From Chrysoperla carnea (Eukaryota; Arthropoda; Insecta; Neuroptera; Chrysopidae): 64,000 nt of DNA. The DNA is taken from assembly GCF_905475395.1 (NCBI RefSeq), contig NC_058337.1, positions 11,830,983-11,894,982 of the forward strand. The letters are read 5' to 3'. Positions 8,413-63,650 of the stretch are shown in pieces. The notes beneath the pieces were generated by a model. That model searched no databases. It was not told where the DNA came from and saw only the letters and a program-made list of their open reading frames with translations. The position numbers and the translations under genes were made by a program. The stretch's first letter is position 1; every line of letters begins with the position of its first letter.

Positions 8413-8816
8413 TATATTTATTTAAAAAAAGTATCTAATCGGGTTATTGACAGATCTCAGGTTTTGCTTACTGAACTCCTTCTGGCGCCTCCACTAAATA
8501 CATAGTAATATTAGAGATCAAGGTTATTAAAATAATAACAAAAACATTTGATTATTTTATTATATACAACATCTTAAATATACAGTGTCGTCCAAGATAT
8601 ACGGAACACTTAATTACTAACTAATTTATTAATTGAAAGCTGTTGTAAACTTATTAATTTGTTTGAGTACTTAATTTCTGAATATGATTAATGAAAGGCG
8701 TACATTGTACAGATATTTATCATATACAAATAATAAGTTCTAAAAATTTGTTGATTGTTAGCAGAAAATGAAAGCCATTGAATTGAAAAAACAGCCATAC
8801 ATCCAACAGCCAACAT
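8413..8816. other. Intergenic DNA, nothing recognised
   Basis: AT-rich with no open frame of note. A string at 8583 (ACAGTGTCGTCCAAGATATA) looks like a Tc1-type terminus, but no partner end was found. Confidence 0.5.
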
Positions 8817-9224
8817 CCATAGCTGATAGACTAATTAAAACGTTGGACTTAAATCCACGAATTTTTACCTGCATAAATCTATCAAAAATACTATTTGAGA
8901 TGTCTACAAAAGCATGTTTTTATACCTGTTTAAGTTTCCATTAAATTTGCAGTCAGATTAGAGCAATGATATCAAAGAATAGTTTTGAGGAAAAGTAAAC
9001 GAAAAATTGAATTGAATTTTCCATAGCTGATAGACTAATTAAAACGTTGGAATTAAATCCACGAATTTTTACCTGAATAAATCTATCAAAAATACTATTT
9101 GAGATGTCTACAAAAGCATGTTTTTACATCTGTTTATGTTTCCATTAAATTTGCAGTCAGATTAGAGCAATGATATCAAAAAATAGTTTTGAGGAAAAGT
9201 AAACGAAAAATTGAATTGAATTTT
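8817..9224. repeat. Exact two-unit 204-bp tandem duplication
   Basis: Unit 1 is 8817-9020 and unit 2 is 9021-9224. Each starts CCATAGCTGATAGACTAATT and ends TTGAATTGAATTTT, and they differ by only a few substitutions. The high identity means the duplication is recent compared with other repeats here. No coding frame spans it. Confidence 0.9.
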
Positions 9225-24168: not shown

Positions 24169-27100
24169 TTATTTTTTTCTTTTTTTTTTTTCTTTTTGGC
24201 AAATTACCCTTCCTTTTTATAAGTTGGCAAAATGTTACTAAGAAAAGTTACTCCGAGAAAATAAATAATCTTATTAATTTTTTAACACAATTCACAGAAA
24301 AATTCACTCACGGATAGTTGTTATTGTAGAATTCCTTTGCCAATTAATAAAAAGCTTGTCTAAACTTACAAAGTAATAATAGTCTTAATAGGCTAAAGTC
24401 TTTTATAAAAATGATGTTTTAATTAAAGTACACGGATCTTCTTGATATTTTGTATAGAGTCATAATTGATAATTGCGAGCAACTCATTTTAGTTACATTT
24501 TGTCAATTTAAAAAGGAAGTAGTTTACCAAAAAGGAAAATAATGATTCCAAGTTTGCCTTAATACTTTTCAAAATAAGCAAAATTTTTCATAAAGAATGA
24601 CTTTTTTTTCTTAAAATATATGAAAATTTACAAGTATAGTTACCTCTATCCGTGGACACACTGTATATATATGCATCTATACGTTAATGTGTCTGTAAAC
24701 ACTCTAGCGGTCGCAATTTAAGTCTGATTTGAATAAAATTTGGTGTCAAGAAGGGTTTTGGTATTTGAAAAGTCAAATTTATTAATGATAAAAATCGACC
24801 GATAAACAAGGGGTGGAGGATGCGCAAAATACAAAATAAACAAGTGAAAAGAAACATTTGACTGAGTTAATTGTTGAAATACCGTGCATAGTCAGTGTTG
24901 ATTTCTTTATCACATAACACATACAAAAATGTATAGACAGTGTTGATGCGCAATCGTTTGTTTTTTTGACGTCACGTAACATAACAAAATATATTTACTT
25001 TTAAATAGACACGCCCACAACTGATATTCCTATATTAATACTTACTATAAAATTTGCACCTAATTAACGCCCTCGTGGATAAGCAGTGATGTTTACAAAA
25101 AAATGTTTCAAACAAAAGTTTTTTATTTTTTTATAAGGAACATTTTTTACATTTAAACTTTTGTTCTATCTCTAACGGTTTACAAGATGGGTCCTACGGA
25201 CCCAAGACCCAATTGACCTATGATGCTCATTTACGAACTTGACCTCACTTTTTACGTCCTGAGTACGCTGTAAAAATTTCAGCTCGATATCTTTTTTCGT
25301 TTATGAGTTATCGTGTCCACAGACGGACGGACAACCGGAAATGGACTAATTAGGTGATTTTATGAACACCTATAACAAAATTTTTTTCCTAGCATCATTA
25401 TTTTTAAGCGTTACAAACTTGGGACTAAACTTAATCTAGTATGTATATTTCATATATACATGGTATAAAAATATTGTATTGTATTTTTTGATTAGTTTTA
25501 AGCAAAAAAGTTCACTTGTGATTTTTTCTCTAAACGCTTAATTTTCGAAAATTAAATTAAATAAAAATTCTTGAAAAATTAAAAATCGTTAATTTCGACA
25601 ATATCAAATTTCCATCAAAATTAGGTTTTGTTTTCTTTTTTCCAATCACCTGTATCTCAAAAACGGTGAGTTTTAGGAAAAAGTTCATGGGAAAAAAAAT
25701 GCTTTGAATACCCCAAAATATAAGGTGTAATGACTGTTTTCTCAAGTTTCATGACTTTTCAGCAAAATTAGCTTGGACGAACGTCTAAGCGCATAGTAAA
25801 AGCATACTTTCTAATCAATATGACTTTGTTTTACACACTCATACGAACATTTTCAGCCGGGTCCCATAAAAAGTTATATTGTTCCTTAGAATTGCATCCT
25901 TAATTGTTTCATTTCCTACAGTATACTTTATTCTACGAACTCAACTATAATAATAACTTTAATAATAATAATTTCTTTAATTTTTTCAGATGATAAACAC
26001 TTACATGTCCGTACTGATGATAATTGGCTAACGCGATTCCTGTACCCAACAAAATTTGATCCTGAAGCCGCCTATAAAAGAGTAATTTTTTGACACAATA
26101 ATTTTTGTTCATTTACTAATTAGAATACATTTTTTTCATTTTACAGATGGTTGATTATTACAAATTAAAAGCGGAAAATCCAAAATTTTTCTTTACAGAA
26201 TCACCAAACAAACTGTCAGAGTTCTTGAACACAGAGTTGAAAATTGTGTTGCGAGATAGAGACTTGAAAGGTCGACGAGTTTTCATCACACAAATGGGTG
26301 AGATTTATCGAATTAAAGTATGAAGCATCTATTAAATGAAAATTGAAATTGGAAACAAGTAAAAACAAACAATTGACTGAGTTAATTGTTGAAATACCAT
26401 TTATAGACAGTGTTGATTACTCTATCACATTACACATACATACATGTCACACATACATAACTGATATTCCCATATAATACATACTATACAATTTACGCAT
26501 AATTTGCGCTCTCACGAGTAACCAGTGATGTTTACAAAAAATGTTTCAGACAAAAGTTGTTTATTTTTTCATAAGGAATATTTATATACCATGTATATGA
26601 AATATACCAATGTATACTAAGTTTAGTCTCAAGTTTGTAACGCTTAAAAATATATTGATGCTATAAAAAAATTTTGGTATAGGTGTTCATAAAATCACCT
26701 AATTAGTCCATTTCCGGTTGTCTGTCTGTCGTCTGTCGTCTATTCGTCTGTCATCACGATTACTCAAAAGCTGAAAATTTTTATAACGTGCAGTGGACGT
26801 AAAAAGTGAGGTCGAGTTCGTAAATGAGCCACATAAGTCAATTGGGTCTTGGGTCCGTAGGACCCATCTTGTAGTCAATTGTTTGTTTTCACTTGCTTTG
26901 TTAATTAATGAAAATTGAATTTGTGTTTTTACTTACCAAATGATAATTAAAATGGATACTTCTACAAAAAATTTCCACTTAAATTAAAATAACTAATCAA
27001 ACTTTTCTATTTTTACAAAGGTAAAGTTCCAAATAACATGTCTTTATTCGATTTAACTCATATGGATGATATTTGGATCGAAGCAGTATTAGATGAACCA

Positions 27101-28873
27101 GAAACACAAAAAAATGGTTTATCAAGTATTATTGATTTATCTAAGACTCCATGGACGATACTTAAGTGGTTAACACCAGCAAATATGCGCGTTGGATCAA
27201 GAAAAGCTGACTTAGTACCATTTACAGATTTACACATACACGTAGTAAACTCATCACCTATTTTAAATGCAGCTATTGCTTTAGTTTTTCCATTTCTAAG
27301 CACTCATACAAAAGAACATGTAAGTTACATTTAATATTATTTAACAAATCGTTGCTAAATCTAAATAATATAGTATATAAAGTGCAGATTCTACCGAAAC
27401 TCGAATCATGTACCTATATTGCTATTATAAAGCCATACCTAGTAAAATATTATTAAAATAAAAATATAAATAAAAAATATTTTTTAAAGGATAAGCTTTT
27501 ATTGTACTAAAAATTAGAAAATAACTAGCTGTTAAACCCGCTTCGCTGGGTTGTTTTTGCACATTTAAATATCAAAATTGTTAAATGAAAGACTTTTTTT
27601 TTAATTCTCTCTGTGTGTACGGAACAGTAAGATTTTTTTGGCCGATCCCAATATTATGTCTACACTCTCTGTGTGTACGGAAAAGTAAGGGAAAGATCGA
27701 TAGAAACCCATGGAACATTCCAGAATATTCGAGAAAGTTCTAGAAAATTCGATAGAAATCCATAGAACATTCCAGAATGTTCGAGAAAATTCTAGAAAAT
27801 TCGATAGAAATCCATAGAACATTCCAGAATGTTCGAGAAAATTCTAGAAAATTCGACAGAAACCCATGGAACATTCCAGATTGTTCGAGAAAGTTTGATA
27901 AAATTCAATAAAAATCCATACAACATTCGAGAATATTCGAGAATGTTCTAGAAAATTCGATAGAAATCCATAGAACATTCCAGAATGTTCGAGAAAATTC
28001 TAGAAAATTCGATAGAAATCCATGGAACATTCCAGAATTTTCGAGAAAAATCGAAAGACACATCTAGTGAAAATTGTACTATTGACAGTGGGGCCTATTG
28101 TACTATTAGAACTATTTTTTTAATCTATTTTCTATGAATTCCTAGATCATTTTTAATTCCACCCCCACCAAACTCCCTTATTCACAATGGGAGCCTAAGG
28201 GCTACCCAATGACATAATTCTCTACCGAAGGTCAATGGTTAGTTTTAGGGAAAATCGGGGACATACAAACAAACACTCTCTTTTTACATATATAGATTAT
28301 GTAGGAAACACTCAAACAGGACTATTCGTAAAAGCTTGTGATACTCCGAATCACTGTGAATATTTTATATTGAGCGCCTCAAGCTTTTACGAATAGTCAT
28401 GTCTGTGTGACTCCTACAAAATTATTAAATGATGAATACATACTTGAAACTTCATGAGTAGCTTCTTTTTGACGAGTCTACCAAACTTTGCTCTACGATT
28501 TTTTTTTCGTAAAAGCTGTGTTTTCAAATAAGTATGATGACGTCCTTTTTGAGTTATCGTTTTGAAAAAACGCAGCAGGGAATTTGTCGGACATGATGGC
28601 CACTTGATAATGTTAATAATTATACACAGTTCAACAAAAGTGAACCATGTATATACGTTTACATTGTAGTTTATTTTTATGTTATTCTTGTTTTAGATTC
28701 ATTTTCATTACTCGGATTGGTCGTCATTGCATAAATTTGTAAATCCTGAGATACTACCGAAAGAATATGGTGGAACCCAAGAAATTGATTTTGATGCAAT
28801 ACGAGAGGAATATGTTTACAATAATGCTTCTAGAATTGTTAAAAATTTGAGTGCTAGTTATAAATTGGATTAG
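13792..28873 (+). CDS. CRAL-TRIO domain lipid-transfer protein (clavesin/TTPA-like)
   Basis: Five exons: 13792-13891, 25990-26081, 26147-26297, 27021-27319 and 28697-28873. They splice in frame to 272 aa with a TAG stop. The protein has the family layout: an N-terminal helical region (NWLTRFLYPTKFDPEAAY at about 45-62), then a CRAL-TRIO pocket with IIDLS (about 151-155), PFLS late in exon 4 and the closing motif LPKEYGG (234-240). Members bind hydrophobic ligands such as tocopherol, retinal or phosphoinositides in the cytosol; the ligand here is unknown. The start at 13792 is chosen because AAACATGC is a fair context; the same frame is open back to 13651 but that part looks like 5' UTR. AATAAA lies at 29028-29033. 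Intron 1 is 12.1 kb and rich in repeats, intron 3 is mostly a repeat, and intron 4 holds the Helitron with heat-shock-like elements. The length is slightly short of the usual 290-310 aa. Confidence 0.85.
13991..14880. repeat. Three copies of a ~200-bp repeat, two direct and one inverted
   Basis: Copies at about 13991-14212 and 14292-14508 share GGAAGTAAAACCGGGATGAG and GGGACAAAAGTTGTTGACAA. A third copy at about 14735-14880 is the reverse complement. All lie in intron 1 of the CRAL-TRIO gene. Copies 2 and 3 could pair in the transcript. No coding frame is shared. Confidence 0.75.
14881..16245. other. Intron 1 sequence, nothing recognised
   Basis: AT-rich intronic sequence without a recognisable gene or element end. 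A small hairpin occurs near 15166-15192 (AAGAGAATTAATTCTCTT). Confidence 0.5.
16246..16813 (+). repeat. Interspersed repeat family A, best full copy
   Basis: About 568 bp from CAAGTGAAAACAAACAATTG to CATGGTATAAAAATG. Internal landmarks are GGTTTACAAGATGGGTCCTA, GGACGGACGGACAACCGGAA and TTAGGTGATTTTATGAACA. The same order is seen at 21860, 24841, 38398 (decayed), 6585 (partial) and, on the other strand, 56600. The 65-codon frame at 16703-16900 is a chance reading of the repeat end. The family has no obvious polymerase III boxes or coding capacity, and I could not assign its class. Confidence 0.85.
17672..17947. mobile_element. Short foldback element with perfect 60-bp arms
   Basis: Arms 17730-17789 and 17878-17937 are exact reverse complements over 60 bp. 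They enclose an 88-bp loop that starts with its own palindrome, GCGGACTGCAGTCCGC. The 12-bp word TCAATGTTCATA stands at 17672-17683 and again at 17936-17947, which could be a target duplication around an element with one incomplete arm. It lies in intron 1 of the CRAL-TRIO gene. Confidence 0.75.
17948..19477. other. Intron 1 sequence, no gene
   Basis: A 105-codon open frame at 18536-18853 and a 75-codon one at 19068-19295 resemble no family I know and lie in low-complexity AT-rich DNA. A small inverted match (TTTTTTGTCGGTACG against CGTACCAATGACAAAAAA) spans about 19242-19333. No other feature was recognised. Confidence 0.45.
19478..19915. repeat. Inverted-repeat element in intron 1
   Basis: The left arm at about 19478-19590 (AAACCGTTTTTGAAATAGAA, then GCGGTCAGCT) is matched in reverse complement at about 19805-19915 (AGCTGACCGC, TCTATTTCAAAAACGG). 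The centre is an AT-rich stretch with further short inverted repeats. The arms are roughly 80-85% identical by eye, so it is an older insertion. Confidence 0.65.
20547..20810 (-). mobile_element. 3' end of a Helitron with Pif1-type helicase tail
   Basis: On the minus strand, 20808-20694 encodes SHGQLYVACSRVGRPSALFV, then FAPDNITKNVVYHKVLK and a stop. This is the closing part of the Rep/Helicase protein of Helitrons, where YVACSRVG is the conserved superfamily 1 helicase motif VI region. About 120 bp further, a GC-rich hairpin (GCGGAACAAAGTTCGC) and the terminal CTAG at 20550-20547, followed by T, give a textbook Helitron 3' end. Everything upstream of the last 37 codons is absent: the foldback repeat at 20811 begins exactly where helicase homology stops. 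It lies in intron 1 of the CRAL-TRIO gene. Confidence 0.8.
20811..21034. repeat. Foldback repeat abutting the Helitron tail
   Basis: The arms start TATGTTATAGTT at 20811 and end AACTATAACATA at 21034. Inner blocks such as CTCTTAATTGAACGGTAAGA match their complement closely over almost 90 bp, with a small loop near 20915. The junction with the Helitron helicase sequence suggests insertion into that element, or formation during its truncation. Confidence 0.75.
21860..22413 (+). repeat. Interspersed repeat family A, near-full copy
   Basis: Same start (CAAGTGAAAACAAA), internal landmarks and end (CATGGTATAAAAAT) as the copy at 16246, with a small deletion after the first 14 bp. It lies in intron 1 of the CRAL-TRIO gene in the sense orientation. 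Confidence 0.85.
22414..23571. other. Intron 1 sequence, no gene
   Basis: Holds a short CA-rich stretch (about 22450-22470) and, at about 23460-23575, the inverted relative of the repeat at 6930-7050. No coding signal was recognised. Confidence 0.5.
23572..23649. repeat. (TA)n microsatellite
   Basis: An almost pure TA run of about 78 bp. A shorter TA run continues at 24132-24164 on the far side of the element at 23650, so both may once have been one tract split by the insertion. Confidence 0.95.
23650..24131. mobile_element. TA-flanked inverted-repeat element inside a microsatellite
   Basis: A 482-bp element bounded by GGGTGTTCTGT and ACAGAACACCC with TA on both sides. The terminal inverted repeats are about 70 bp (CTGCAGATCGTCG, AATAAGCTCATAAAGACGAA). 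A TA duplication is typical of Tc1/mariner-type integration. No transposase is encoded. It lies in intron 1 of the CRAL-TRIO gene. Confidence 0.75.
24841..25473 (+). repeat. Interspersed repeat family A, copy with small insertion
   Basis: Same start and end as the copy at 16246. About 70 extra bases lie near 24930-25020, between the start block and the GGTTTACAAGATGGGTCCTA block. It lies about 500 bp upstream of exon 2 of the CRAL-TRIO gene. Confidence 0.85.
26356..26896. repeat. Family A repeat rearranged head-to-head (intron 3)
   Basis: The first 220 bp read in the sense direction (CAAGTAAAAACAAACAATTG onward). The remainder is the reverse complement of the family's 3' two thirds and finishes with CAATTGTTTGTTTTCACTTG, so the two outer ends are inverted copies of each other. 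No other copy here has this form. It makes up most of the 723-bp intron 3 of the CRAL-TRIO gene. Confidence 0.8.
27525..28296 (-). mobile_element. Non-autonomous Helitron carrying a heat-shock-like array
   Basis: On the minus strand the element starts TCTATATATGTAAAAAGAGA at 28296 and ends with a hairpin (CCCAGCGAAGCGGG), eight bases and CTAG at 27525. The flanks are A and T with no duplication, the Helitron signature. Length is 772 bp with no protein. The inside is dominated by the 52-bp tandem units listed separately and by a direct repeat of CTCTGTGTGTACGGAA (about 27608 and 27667). It lies in intron 4 of the CRAL-TRIO gene, antisense to it. Confidence 0.85.
27713..28060. promoter_or_regulatory. 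Seven 52-bp units of tandem heat-shock-element pentamers
   Basis: Units start at 27713, 27765, 27817, 27869, 27921, 27973 and 28025. A complete unit is GAAcaTTCcaGAAtgTTCga, then GAAaaTTCtaGAAaaTTCga, then a 12-bp spacer: eight alternating nGAAn/nTTCn pentamers at exact 5-bp spacing. Heat-shock factor trimers bind three or more such pentamers. Units 1, 2, 3 and 6 keep all eight; 5 keeps seven; 4 and 7 are decayed but keep at least five. Binding is predicted, not shown. The array could act on the CRAL-TRIO gene around it or on antisense transcription. Confidence 0.75.
28321..28398. repeat. Short hairpin just outside the Helitron
   Basis: GACTATTCGTAAAAGCTTG at 28321-28339 is followed by its exact complement at 28380-28398 with a 40-bp loop. 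The flanks also show partial symmetry (CACTCAAACAG and CTGTGTGACTC). Origin unknown. Confidence 0.8.
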
Positions 28874-32898: not shown

Positions 32899-35800
32899 AT
32901 GAATAACTCGTCATCAAACCCGGGACCAGTTCCCCCTCGTTGGTTGCATTGCCCTCGGAAATCTAGTGGATTAATCGCTGATAAATTTTTGGCATTTAAA
33001 ACACCCTTAAGCGAGCGCTTCGATAAGGATGTACCACCGGAATGTCGTTTTCCCCCAAAAATGATATTCCAAACAAAACAATTTAAGGTAAATTATTTTT
33101 AATCTAATACATATTTATGTATTTACTATGAGAGTATTACAAATTTTAGGCAAAATTGGGCCTTTGGATTGATTTAACTAATACAACTAGATTCTATGAC
33201 AAAGCAGATATTCAAGCGGAAGGTTGTAAATATATAAAATTACAATGTAGAGGACATGGTGAGACTCCTTCGCTGGAGCAAACGGCGACATTTGTATCAT
33301 TAGTTCATAATTTTATCACACAGCATCCATTAGAAATTGTTGGAGTACATTGTACTCACGGATTCAATCGTACTGGATTTTTAATTGCATCATATTTAAT
33401 TGAAAAACAAGATTGGAGTGTGGAAAGTGCTCTTGCACAATTTGCAAGTGTTAGGTAAGTAATTTGGCGTTGTTTTAGTTCAGTCAGTTTAATCTATTGA
33501 ATTCAATTAAACTCATTAATACGAACTTTTAATGTTGATAAATTATCTAAGTAACATCCTCATCCATGTACGTTTGGTATTAAGTAGAAATGTACAGTTC
33601 AAACACTTAGAAAACGTGGCAAATGCGGCATCTTTGTATGATGTACAATCTTCATATAAAACTTTGGATCGTATATCATTTCTAGTATTCCTTTGCTAGA
33701 TAGGCTTCTCAGAGCCTACACACATGGATTTAACTATTTTCAGAGTTGCGAACCAGTTTTTTACTACTTAATTCTCATCTGCATGTGTAGGGCTTATGTC
33801 CACCAGGTATGGAATTCTAGAAAGTTATGGAATTTTATTTAGGCCATATTTTTTTCATTATTCACACTTGCAGCTAGTTTTGGATTTTATTAATCCTTTA
33901 TCCGCCTTTCTACATAATTATTATATATATGTAAAGTCTTATTTTTTAGAAAGACTACAGGAACTAAAGCAATTTCTTAAAAGGAATTTATTTTTATAAG
34001 TGTAGTGAATTTCTGATTAAATTTTTGTATATCATGCAATCAAAGTTTTTATTTTATGTACTGCATATTTAAGGTGTTTCCATCAAAGCTAAAAAATATG
34101 TTAGCCTCCCGTATAATAACTTCCTTTAAAAAATAGCTTTCAAATAGAAATTGATAATTTAAAAAATTTTGAACGAACTTAAAGGAGCGAGGAATGGCGA
34201 AGAGCTTCAACGAATATTCTTGAAGTTGTTTGAATTGGTAGTAACACTTGTCACACTTAATTTCAATTTTCACATGGTGCTAAATTAACAGTAATTCAAT
34301 GAAAACAGAAGTGTACATAACGACTTTGGTCTGGTATCCGTATCATTTATTAAAAAATTAACTCCTAAATGATCTTCCTAGCGAAAAATGTACCAGAAAG
34401 TGGGTACTTACCACTGACAAGCTTATTGCAAATTTTATAACCGAATTTATTATTTGTTCCCGAATTTTTAGTCGGCACGTATGGTACTTATTTAGCAATA
34501 TTAAATGAAATGAACGTATTAATATGTTTATTCTACAGACTGCGCAGTTAAAATAACTATTTTTAAGGACTAATGCATTTTGTTTCAGAGCACCTGGAAT
34601 ATACAAAGACGATTATATAGCTGAACTTTATCGAAGATATGATGATATTGATGATGCGCCTCCGGCTCCTGAATTACCTGATTGGTGTAACGGTTAGTTC
34701 CATTTTTCATATATTTATAAGCCATTTTACAAGATTACATGGTGCTTATTAATTCGATGCCATTTCTGATTCGATGAATTTCACTATACGAACGCGGTGT
34801 GAAAAATGAACGGTCCTCGAAAACTTGCAATTTTTAAGTTTTTTCACATTATTTTCATTTAAAATAGTTCGGAGAACAAAAATTAATACCTTTAAGGAAA
34901 GAAATTTTCCTTTATCCAATAGCTAATGAGTTTGTGACTTCTTTAAATCACAATGCATTCCTCAAATCATTATCTTTTGGAAAACAGATCGTAATGGCAC
35001 GAGTTTCAAAAAAAAAATTTTGTTTCAAAAAATAAAGCATGTAACAAATTCCATTTATTTCAATCTAATCATTGTAACTCATCGTTTTCGTTTCAATAAT
35101 TACGTAATTCGACCACACAACACACTTTGAAATTCCCAAGATTGGCTAAACTCGCATTTGAAACATATCTAAGAACACCCTCCATTAAATTATCTTTTTC
35201 CTTAGAGTCTTCTCCAAACTGGATCGATTTGAGGATCATCGCCTATTTTTAGTTGTTTCGGATACAGAACACTCTACACGCACTTAAAACATAGCTAAGA
35301 ACTCTCTCCATTAAATTACCTTTTAAACGAAAAAAAAAAATCGGTTCATTCGTTTAGGCGCTACGATGCCATAGACAGGCATACACACACACACACACAC
35401 ATAGCGGTCAAACTTATAACACCCTTTTTTTGGTTGAGAGGTGAAAAATATGTCTCATCTGGTTATCAGATGGGTGAAGGTTGACCTTACACCGTCCTTA
35501 AACTAATACTTGTAACAAACCGTTTGCAATTTTATGTTAGTTTGTTCTAGCCTTTAACAACCAAATATCCATGGAAATATCAGAACATTTCAAATTTTCG
35601 CTTTTTAAGCCTAATTTTACAGTTAAACAATTTTTAAAACCCGATTTTTTAATATCGAATAATGTTTTATATTCCTTATGGAAAACATATTATAGAATAC
35701 GATGATAAGGATGATGATGGAGAAGAAGTAGGTCGAAGTAGTGAAGAGCATGAAAAAAAATCAAAAAAGAAACAAAAAAATGCCACATTTATGGAAGGTG

Positions 35801-63127: not shown

Positions 63128-63250
63128 AATGTTTGAGTTTCTTTAACATTTCATTGAATAGAAAAAGATGCGTGACCCGCCTCTTCATGATAACATAAAT
63201 ATTGTCGGGTTGAAATAAATAGACTTGAACAGTTTGCATTAAATAAAGGA

Positions 63251-63650
63251 ATGAGTTATGTAGTCTTTCTTCTCTCCATGACTTGTAAAACTTCCATTAT
63301 GATCCACGTTGGTTGTATAGTCGTACCATTAAATGAGTTATATAGTCTTTCTTCACTCCACGACTTGTAAAACCTCCATTATCATCCTCGTTGGTTGTAT
63401 AGTCGTACCATTAAATGAGTTATATAGTCTTCACTCCACGACTTGTAAAACTTCCATTATCATCCTCGTTGGTTGTATAGTCGTACGATTGAATCGGTTA
63501 TATACTCTTCAATCCACACCTTGTAAAACTTTCATTATCTCATCCTCGTTGGTTGTACAGTCGTACCATTAAATGAGTTATATAGTCTTTCTTCACTCCA
63601 CGACTTGTAAAATTTCCTTATTACACTCGTTGATTGTACAGTAGTACAAT
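63251..63650. repeat. 80-bp minisatellite, about five units
   Basis: Units start near 63251, 63333, 63415, 63492 and 63573, each containing ATGAGTTATATAGTCTT, CACGACTTGTAAAAC and CTCGTTGGTTGTATAGTCGT. Two units have lost a TTCT. Because the unit is not a multiple of three in every case, the 79-codon frame across it is a shadow. Confidence 0.85.

What the first reader, a model, noticed from the sequence alone, without database searches (positions are those of the whole stretch)
27713..28060. A Helitron has placed about 45-50 heat-shock pentamers inside an intron
Seven 52-bp units, each up to eight alternating GAA/TTC pentamers at strict 5-bp spacing, lie inside an element with full Helitron ends. 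Heat-shock factor is known to bind nGAAnnTTCnnGAAn, and Helitrons carrying such sites have been described in Caenorhabditis. A comparable array in an insect-type genome would be an independent case. The ideal spacing over 40 bp per unit is unlikely to arise by chance, and four of seven units are complete. The inference that it is functional is mine.
Basis: partly seen in the sequence, partly recalled or inferred. Interest (0 to 1): 0.85.

Follow-up and report, generated by a model that had tools for sequence, protein, structure and literature searches.

The report
Transposon carrying heat-shock switch arrays
A young jumping DNA element (a Helitron) in this animal genome carries long arrays of the exact DNA motif that heat-shock factor binds, apparently inherited from the switch of its own transposase gene, so heat may trigger its spread and it scatters hundreds of potential heat-shock switches through the genome.

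Summary
Confirmed and extended. Window 27525-28296 (minus strand) is a complete non-autonomous Helitron inside an intron of a CRAL-TRIO gene. It holds a 52-bp x 6.8 array with 48 strictly phased, alternating GAA/TTC pentamers (four complete 8-pentamer runs); dinucleotide shuffles never exceed 4 in a row. The genome has about 300 copies; 36 of them average 0.9% from consensus. All 20 copies chosen without reference to the array carry phased runs. New here: the element is an internal deletion of a decayed 6.3-kb autonomous Helitron, in which this array and a second inverted one lie upstream of a TATA box and the Rep/helicase gene. A related family with an intact transposase gene has an hsp70-like promoter: a short heat-shock element 19 bp before a TATA box. 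Best reading: heat-shock factor drives the transposase, and the derivatives keep and disperse its binding array, as reported for Helitrons of Caenorhabditis and wheat; a published metazoan survey found such enrichment only in Caenorhabditis. HSF binding and heat induction remain untested here; the host species could not be named.

The parts
27525..28296 (-). Complete non-autonomous Helitron, 772 bp, inserted between A and T; 5' end (TC) at 28296, 3' end (CTAG) at 27525
   Evidence: Copies with different flanks share these ends. Left-flank base A in all 36 of 40 copies with both ends recognised (the right-hand T was part of the main search pattern there). In the array-blind set A before TC in 20 of 20 and T after CTAG in 17 of 17 with a recognised 3' end.
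27535..27552 (-). 3'-terminal hairpin (minus strand AACCC..GGGTT) a few bases before CTAG
   Evidence: Read; 300 genome matches (146 + 154) of the 30-base 3' end with up to 2 mismatches, 0 for the reversed control.
28283..28296 (-). 5' terminus of the Helitron, TCTATATATGTAAA on the minus strand in this copy
   Evidence: 5' A|TC junction in 20 of 20 further copies.
27697..28049 (.). 52-bp x 6.8 tandem array of alternating GAA/TTC pentamers (heat-shock-element array, 'array 1')
   Evidence: TRF; run analysis and shuffles; unit comparison.
27712..27751 (.). Complete 8-pentamer run, unit 1
27764..27803 (.). Complete 8-pentamer run, unit 2
27816..27855 (.). Complete 8-pentamer run, unit 3
27925..27959 (.). 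7-pentamer run, unit 5
27972..28011 (.). Complete 8-pentamer run, unit 6
28024..28048 (.). 5-pentamer run, unit 7 (partial)
27321..28696 (+). Intron of a CRAL-TRIO gene that holds the Helitron in antisense orientation
   Evidence: Flanking exons 27032-27320 and 28697-28870 match adjacent parts (39-125 and 127-153 of 153) of PF00650; splice bases read.

Best explanation
The window element is an internal-deletion derivative of a rolling-circle transposon (Helitron) whose Rep/helicase gene is driven by a heat-shock-type promoter. In the parent, tandem and inverted arrays of heat-shock elements sit upstream of a TATA box and an A-rich leader. Under heat or other proteotoxic stress, the host's HSF trimers bind the phased nGAAn pentamers cooperatively and switch the transposase on. 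The transposase then mobilises the parent and, in trans, short copies like the one in the window that keep both ends plus array 1. Each new copy sets a ready-made, very strong HSF-binding array at a new site. SHOWN here on sequence: family, ends, array, deletion relationship, position of the arrays before a TATA box and the Rep gene, a second related family with HSE + TATA before its gene, and part of an HSF DNA-binding domain in the genome. INFERRED: promoter function, HSF binding, heat induction, trans-mobilisation, and any effect on neighbouring genes.
For: Array statistics. About 300 near-identical copies; 20 of 20 array-blind copies carry phased runs. Decayed autonomous copy C6:9726989-9733301: 5' TC end, array 1, array 2 in inverted orientation, TATATAAGG 61 bp after the last pentamer, leader 51% A, then Rep (PF14214), helicase pieces (PF21530; PF05970 only at 20.9 bits, below its cut-off of 25.9) and the family's own 3' end at 98% over 63 bp. 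The window type = the 5' 706 bp of that element joined to its 3' end (with copy L018 as query). Related family L054 (71% DNA identity in the coding region; intact 1460-aa ORF with Rep and PIF1 domains): 4-pentamer HSE 19 bp before TATATAAG, a run length reached by 2 of 5000 shuffles; HSE string and TATA box at the same spacing in 10 of 11 further copies. Host hsp70 genes show the same order, gapped HSE then TATATAAG (read in L071-L073). Upstream regions of 16 other Rep loci (of 64 matches) have no run of 4 or more (0 of 16), so this is not a generic Helitron feature. Part of an HSF DNA-binding domain present (profile positions 23-60 of 100, 42 bits). GAA/TTC bases vary less between units than spacers: 31/384 against 64/448, p = 0.006, units not independent; by pentamer position 24, 14, 3, 14, 21 of 128. 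Precedents with experiments: Caenorhabditis Helitron1_CE (PMC6927752, PMC6765114) and wheat Xuan-Feng (PMC13286980).
Against: Among 37 of 39 arrays comparable without gaps, GAA/TTC bases of the young copies are no more conserved than the rest (18/5328 against 24/8140, p = 0.75), so no selection is visible after insertion; within array 1 alone the unit comparison is not significant (8/168 against 18/196, p = 0.15). The only close autonomous copy is broken (fragmented ORFs, damaged 3' hairpin), so the actual mobiliser of the young copies is not identified. The query element shares with the L054 region only a 23-bp HSE-like stretch, and the L054 leader is not A-rich (36% A). One of 11 further L054-family stretches (L112) has neither HSE nor TATA box. 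The non-autonomous copies lack the parent's TATA-box promoter, so their own regulatory effect is unproven.
Confidence: 0.75

Rival explanations
1. Neutral minisatellite: a 10-bp palindromic seed (AGAAnnTTCn) was multiplied by slippage or rolling-circle replication and only happens to fit the HSF consensus; it is a passenger with no regulatory role.
For: TRF also sees a 10-bp period; unit number varies between copies (elements of 476-840 bp); in the prokaryote collection 8 of the 11 stretches with an 8-pentamer run are exact 10-bp repeats, and 3, as well as all 3 viral-contig stretches, have somewhat varied spacers without any HSF to explain them; no site-specific conservation among the young copies.
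Against: Here the spacers have diverged more than GAA/TTC. The array sits before a TATA box and transposase gene. A related family has an HSE + TATA arrangement at the same place. The frequency is of another order: 1828 seven-pentamer matches in 0.56 Gb here.
Confidence: 0.15
2. Structural role: the palindrome-rich array forms hairpins or cruciforms used in rolling-circle replication, or binds the transposase, rather than HSF.
For: The single strand folds much better than 100 shuffles (z = -4.96); arrays 1 and 2 are inverted relative to each other in the autonomous copy.
Against: Any alternating GAA/TTC string is palindromic, so the fold follows from the HSE grammar. A copy with only 5 phased pentamers has both ends recognised (L080). 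The related L054 element has one 4-pentamer run and no array.
Confidence: 0.07
3. HSF binds, but the main consequence in non-autonomous copies is as an HSF sink, or a silenced heterochromatic repeat, with no effect on neighbouring genes (compatible with the best explanation for the parent).
For: In C. elegans, genes with Helitron HSEs have more repressive chromatin marks and lower expression (PMC6927752, section 8). About 300 copies with tens of pentamers each is a large number of sites.
Against: In the same study nearby genes are nonetheless up-regulated by heat (PMC6927752 abstract). No data for this genome.
Confidence: 0.3

Closest known systems
HSE-bearing Helitrons of Caenorhabditis (Helitron1_CE, HelitronY1_CE, HelitronY1A_CE, HelitronY4_CE, Helitron2_CE, Helitron7_CB)
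   Same: Helitron with clustered, overlapping HSEs; HSEs upstream of the Rep-helicase gene of autonomous members (14 for F33H12.6, 85 for CBG26851); several classes carry HSEs (PMC6927752: abstract, passages, sections 6, 8, 9, 14; PMC6765114 passages)
   Different: Different genome, apparently an arthropod; here a regular 52-bp unit with 8 uninterrupted pentamers and a deletion derivative traceable to its parent; HSF binding and heat induction shown in the worm, not here. Sequence homology between the two arrays was not tested (no worm sequence in hand).
Wheat Xuan-Feng Helitrons
   Same: Autonomous partner (Feng) with a predicted nTTCnnGAAn element and a heat-responsive promoter, tested as the driver of a shorter one (Xuan) (PMC13286980, abstract start and passages)
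   Different: Plant; a predicted element rather than long arrays
ONSEN/ATCOPIA78 of Arabidopsis
   Same: A transposon that exploits the host's heat-stress response (PMC3907296, title and start of abstract in a listing; the shared motif from a passage in PMC13286980)
   Different: LTR retrotransposon, not a Helitron
Insect Helitron families such as Hel1
   Same: Helitrons of insects, in two species mostly in introns (PMC6544945, abstract and passages)
   Different: No occurrence of 'heat' in the main text of that paper
hsp70 promoters of the same genome
   Same: Gapped HSE followed by TATATAAG, leader 49% A in L071
   Different: At most 3 perfectly phased pentamers in a row (4 of 6 upstream regions have such a run, not always at the promoter); no homology with the Helitron upstream regions beyond short, mostly HSE-like matches

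Membership tests
Helitron (rolling-circle transposon) | 5' TC and 3' CTRR termini, insertion between A and T | tested here: met
   TC..CTAG with A|T flanks: A at the left in 36 of 36; A before TC in 20 of 20 and T after CTAG in 17 of 17. The rule itself is recalled.
Helitron (rolling-circle transposon) | Short hairpin a few bases before the 3' end | tested here: met
   AACCCAGCGAAGCGGGTT then TAACAGCTAG; read by eye, not folded
Helitron (rolling-circle transposon) | Autonomous member encodes Rep and PIF1-type helicase | tested here: met
   Decayed partner: PF14214 and PF21530 above cut-off, PF05970 below it (20.9 against 25.9 bits), in separate ORF pieces; related L054 has PF14214, PF05970 and PF21530 above cut-off in one ORF
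HSE-bearing Helitron (Caenorhabditis type) | Clusters of phased nGAAn/nTTCn pentamers inside the element beyond chance | tested here: met
HSE-bearing Helitron (Caenorhabditis type) | HSEs upstream of the Rep-helicase gene | tested here: met
HSE-bearing Helitron (Caenorhabditis type) | HSF occupancy after heat shock | not testable with these tools
   Needs ChIP or CUT&RUN
HSE-bearing Helitron (Caenorhabditis type) | Heat induction of transposase and of nearby genes | not testable with these tools
   Needs RNA-seq
HSE-bearing Helitron (Caenorhabditis type) | Common descent with the nematode elements | not tested
   No nematode Helitron sequence was fetched
Promoter captured from a host hsp70 gene | Sequence homology with a host hsp70 promoter | tested here: not met
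   Only short matches, mostly HSE-like, against 6 hsp70 upstream regions

The most novel reading that the evidence does not exclude
A lineage of arthropod Helitrons has tied its life cycle to the heat-shock response separately from nematodes and plants: two related families in one genome have HSF-type promoters on their transposase genes, and one has turned that promoter into a transmissible array retained by its deletion derivatives, because HSF binding opens their chromatin and makes them better substrates. The roughly 300 young copies would then form a heat-inducible layer of enhancers acquired recently by this species.
Probability: 0.25. Interest if true: 0.8.

Novelty: new member of a known kind. 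Interest (0 to 1): 0.62.

Why it matters
A published survey of UCSC metazoan genomes with annotated Helitrons found HSE enrichment in Helitrons only in Caenorhabditis, and no dense HSE clusters in the other bilaterians examined (PMC6927752, sections 9 and 14). A well-resolved case in another animal genome, with young copies, a traceable parent and a second related family, would make heat-coupled Helitron transposition a recurrent strategy rather than a nematode oddity. It is also directly testable: heat one strain, sequence RNA, map HSF and new insertions.

Tried and rejected
Capture of a host hsp70 promoter: rejected, only short matches, mostly HSE-like, in 6 upstream regions. Generic property of this genome's Helitrons: rejected, 0 of 16 other Rep upstream regions (2.2-2.3 kb each; 16 chosen of 64 matches) have a run of 4 or more; two have runs of 3: L056 (three runs in a GAA/TTC-rich stretch about 1.4-1.8 kb before a start codon, left unexplained) and L062 (an older member of the L054 family). 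Promoters beyond the fetched stretches would have been missed. Purifying selection in young copies: looked for and not found. Relatives in viral contigs: the transposase found none; three viral contigs hold an 8-pentamer run, one of them (L099) lying in predicted ORFs that look phage-like (read by eye); not pursued. As a background rate, the 8-pentamer pattern occurs in 11 stretches of the prokaryote collection (257 billion bases by the tool's description), 8 of them exact 10-bp repeats. Naming the host: the cytochrome oxidase search did not complete; (TTAGG)8 occurs in 71 + 121 matches, and those listed (the list is cut) are interior to chromosomes, compatible with an arthropod but not proof. 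Literature: the listings (7 of 7 papers shown; 20 of 40; 15 of 37; 20 of 685; 12 of 59) showed no insect Helitron with HSE arrays; this covers only the listed rows of the held open-access library. PMC13104882 (passages) only cites the Caenorhabditis work.
Full report
What is there. The stretch 27697-28049 is a 52-bp tandem array with 6.8 copies. Each complete unit contains eight pentamers alternating nGAAn and nTTCn without a break, a 2-base step and a weaker pair. The window copy has runs of 8, 8, 8, 7, 8 and 5 pentamers; 48 of 56 GAA/TTC triplets are phased. Dinucleotide shuffles of the array (2000) and of the tandem unit (20000) never exceed 4 in a row. In 163.5 kb of other DNA of this genome (the rest of the window and flanks of 38 copies) there is no run of 4 or more and only 5 runs of 3. 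Genome-wide the 7-pentamer pattern has 914 forward and 914 reverse matches, and its reversed control none.

The element. The array lies in a 772-bp Helitron on the minus strand, from TC at 28296 to CTAG at 27525, with the usual hairpin before the 3' end. Comparison of 40 copies from the same genome shows shared ends and different flanks. In the 36 with both ends recognised the left flank base is A throughout; the right-hand T was part of the main search pattern there. Four of the 40 were left out because an end was not recognised (L003, L012, L020, L031). The second set has A before TC in 20 of 20 and T after CTAG in 17 of 17 with a recognised 3' end. The 36 copies lie on average 0.90% from their consensus, so the burst is young. 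The 3' end occurs 300 times with at most 2 mismatches, control 0. The listing shows 100 seven-pentamer matches in 17 loci at the start of C1 (my count; the last locus may be cut), about 6 a locus, which extrapolates to about 300 loci for 1828 matches. Of 15 three-prime ends in the same stretch, 14 have an array within 1.5 kb; of the 17 array loci, 14 have such a 3' end.

Is the array part of the family? One search was queried with the array and is therefore biased. I fetched 20 further copies found with the 5' portion alone (20 of its 40 matches; left out were the window copy, 6 copies already held and 13 others). All 20 carry phased runs, 5 to 52 pentamers counted in runs of 3 or more, mean 31.8; the 17 with a recognised 3' end are 476 to 840 bp long. 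They are best matches of the 5' portion, so older copies are not sampled. The array is a constant part of the young family but varies in unit number.

Where the array comes from. One locus, C6:9726989-9733301 (L031 and L053), starts with the family's 5' end, continues through array 1, then has a second array in the opposite orientation. After the last pentamer come 61 bp, TATATAAGG, an A-rich leader (51% A over the stretch I took as leader) and a likely leader splice donor, and then an open frame leading into the Helitron Rep domain, helicase pieces (PF21530; PF05970 below its cut-off) and finally the family's 3' end at 98% identity over 63 bp. The window type equals the first 706 bp of this element joined to its last part. 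So it is an internal-deletion derivative, and the array belongs to the upstream region of the transposase gene. This copy is broken: the frame is in pieces and the 3' hairpin lacks one arm. It is the only close copy: a 2-kb coding stretch finds itself and then nothing above 78% identity, that one over 96 bp.

A related family. Fourteen other places match that coding stretch at 71% over about 1.6 kb. Eight of them compared directly are 99.5-100% identical to each other, and L054 has an intact 1460-aa ORF with Rep and PIF1 domains and, read by eye, Helitron ends. Its upstream region has AGAAATTTCTCGAATATTCT, four phased pentamers, 19 bp before TATATAAG. Only 2 of 5000 shuffles reach 4. In 11 of the 13 other copies I looked for the string TTTCTCGAATATTCTAGAG (three of the four pentamers) and the TATA box: both occur at the same string-to-string spacing of 13 bp in 10, and the eleventh fetched stretch (L112) has neither. 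Of the remaining two, L062 keeps a run of 3 and one was not examined. The leader of L054 is not A-rich (36% A). Host hsp70 genes in divergent pairs show the same order of parts with gapped HSEs (read in L071-L073): a run of 3 in 4 of 6 upstream regions, never more, and only short matches, mostly HSE-like, with the Helitron upstream regions. Sixteen other Rep loci have no run of 4 or more upstream. Part of an HSF DNA-binding domain is in the genome (positions 23-60 of 100, 42 bits).

Constraint. Across 16 units of arrays 1 and 2, the three core positions of the pentamers vary less (14, 3, 14 of 128) than the two flanking ones (24, 21 of 128); core against spacer 31/384 and 64/448, p = 0.006, with array 1 alone not significant (p = 0.15) and array 2 alone p = 0.035. 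Units are copied from each other, so these p-values are too small. Among the young copies nothing is seen: 18/5328 core and 24/8140 other changes in 37 of 39 arrays, p = 0.75. This is what one expects if the motif matters in the parent's promoter but not, or not yet, in the dispersed copies; it is also compatible with no function.

How it most likely works. HSF trimers bind arrays of inverted pentamers. Eight uninterrupted pentamers per unit, repeated, should be a very strong target (established knowledge, not measured here). In the parent, this drives the transposase under stress. The non-autonomous copies, keeping both ends, are mobilised in trans and take array 1 with them. Whether the array helps them (open chromatin) or merely travels along cannot be decided from sequence. 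For neighbouring genes, here a CRAL-TRIO gene with the element antisense in an intron, the array is a potential heat-responsive enhancer.

Comparison with known systems. In C. elegans, Helitrons hold 61.4% of genomic HSEs (PMC6927752, section 6), Helitron1_CE is bound by HSF-1 and induced by heat in an HSF-1-dependent way (PMC6765114, passages; PMC6927752, passages), and nearby genes respond (PMC6927752 abstract). The authors found the enrichment only in Caenorhabditis among UCSC metazoans with annotated Helitrons (sections 9 and 14). In wheat, several Feng Helitrons have a predicted nTTCnnGAAn element, the Feng8 promoter is heat-responsive in a reporter assay, and Feng8 was tested as the driver of Xuan1 (PMC13286980, passages). 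The present element works, on its anatomy, like these. It is a Helitron by every feature tested. Membership in an HSF-driven class is met on sequence and untested on function. Whether it shares descent with the nematode elements was not tested.

Verdict. It is a new member of a known kind, in an animal genome outside Caenorhabditis, of which the paper listings seen show no earlier case. The host species, and thus the claim of an insect, is not proven.

Noticed in passing
C1 of the genome (3' ends listed): Copies crowd towards both ends of the largest chromosome: 60 of 88 lie in the outer 40.8 of 140 Mb. Cause unknown (insertion preference, recombination or gene density).
   Followed up: partly
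C6:6-13 Mb: About half of the Rep matches (32 of 64 by my count) fall in this stretch of the small chromosome, many of them partial or with stops; a likely transposon-rich region.
   Followed up: no
C3:3767553-3809834: Seven Rep matches of the same score, most spaced 5.81 kb apart: Helitron genes in a head-to-tail array, as rolling-circle replication could produce.
   Followed up: no
L031:1590-2840 (C6:9.727 Mb): Two HSE arrays in opposite orientation within one Helitron, separated by repeats of CGTACACACAGAGAG.
   Followed up: partly
L056 (C6:11862200-11864400): A GAA/TTC-rich stretch with three 3-pentamer runs upstream of another Helitron Rep gene, 70-76% similar to the arrays over short lengths; possibly a decayed old array.
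   Followed up: partly
C4:64.68 Mb, C4:68.14 Mb, C2:36.86 Mb: Three divergent pairs of hsp70 genes.
   Followed up: partly
window 33150-33458: Exon of a dual-specificity phosphatase (PF00782) downstream of the CRAL-TRIO gene, resembling the mRNA-capping enzyme (the latter recalled).
   Followed up: no
window 8816-9224, 1663-2102, 63250-63647, 471-574: Other tandem repeats: 204 bp x 2 (97%), 218 bp x 2, 78 bp x 4.9, 34 bp x 3.1.
   Followed up: no
genome G000, interior of C1-C3: Short interior (TTAGG)n blocks; none of the listed matches is at the ends of C1, C2 or C3 (list cut at the first places).
   Followed up: no
L098, L099, L100 (viral contigs): Runs of 8 to 10 alternating GAA/TTC pentamers with varied spacers in three viral contigs, L098 and L100 sharing the same sequence; meaning unknown.
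   Followed up: partly
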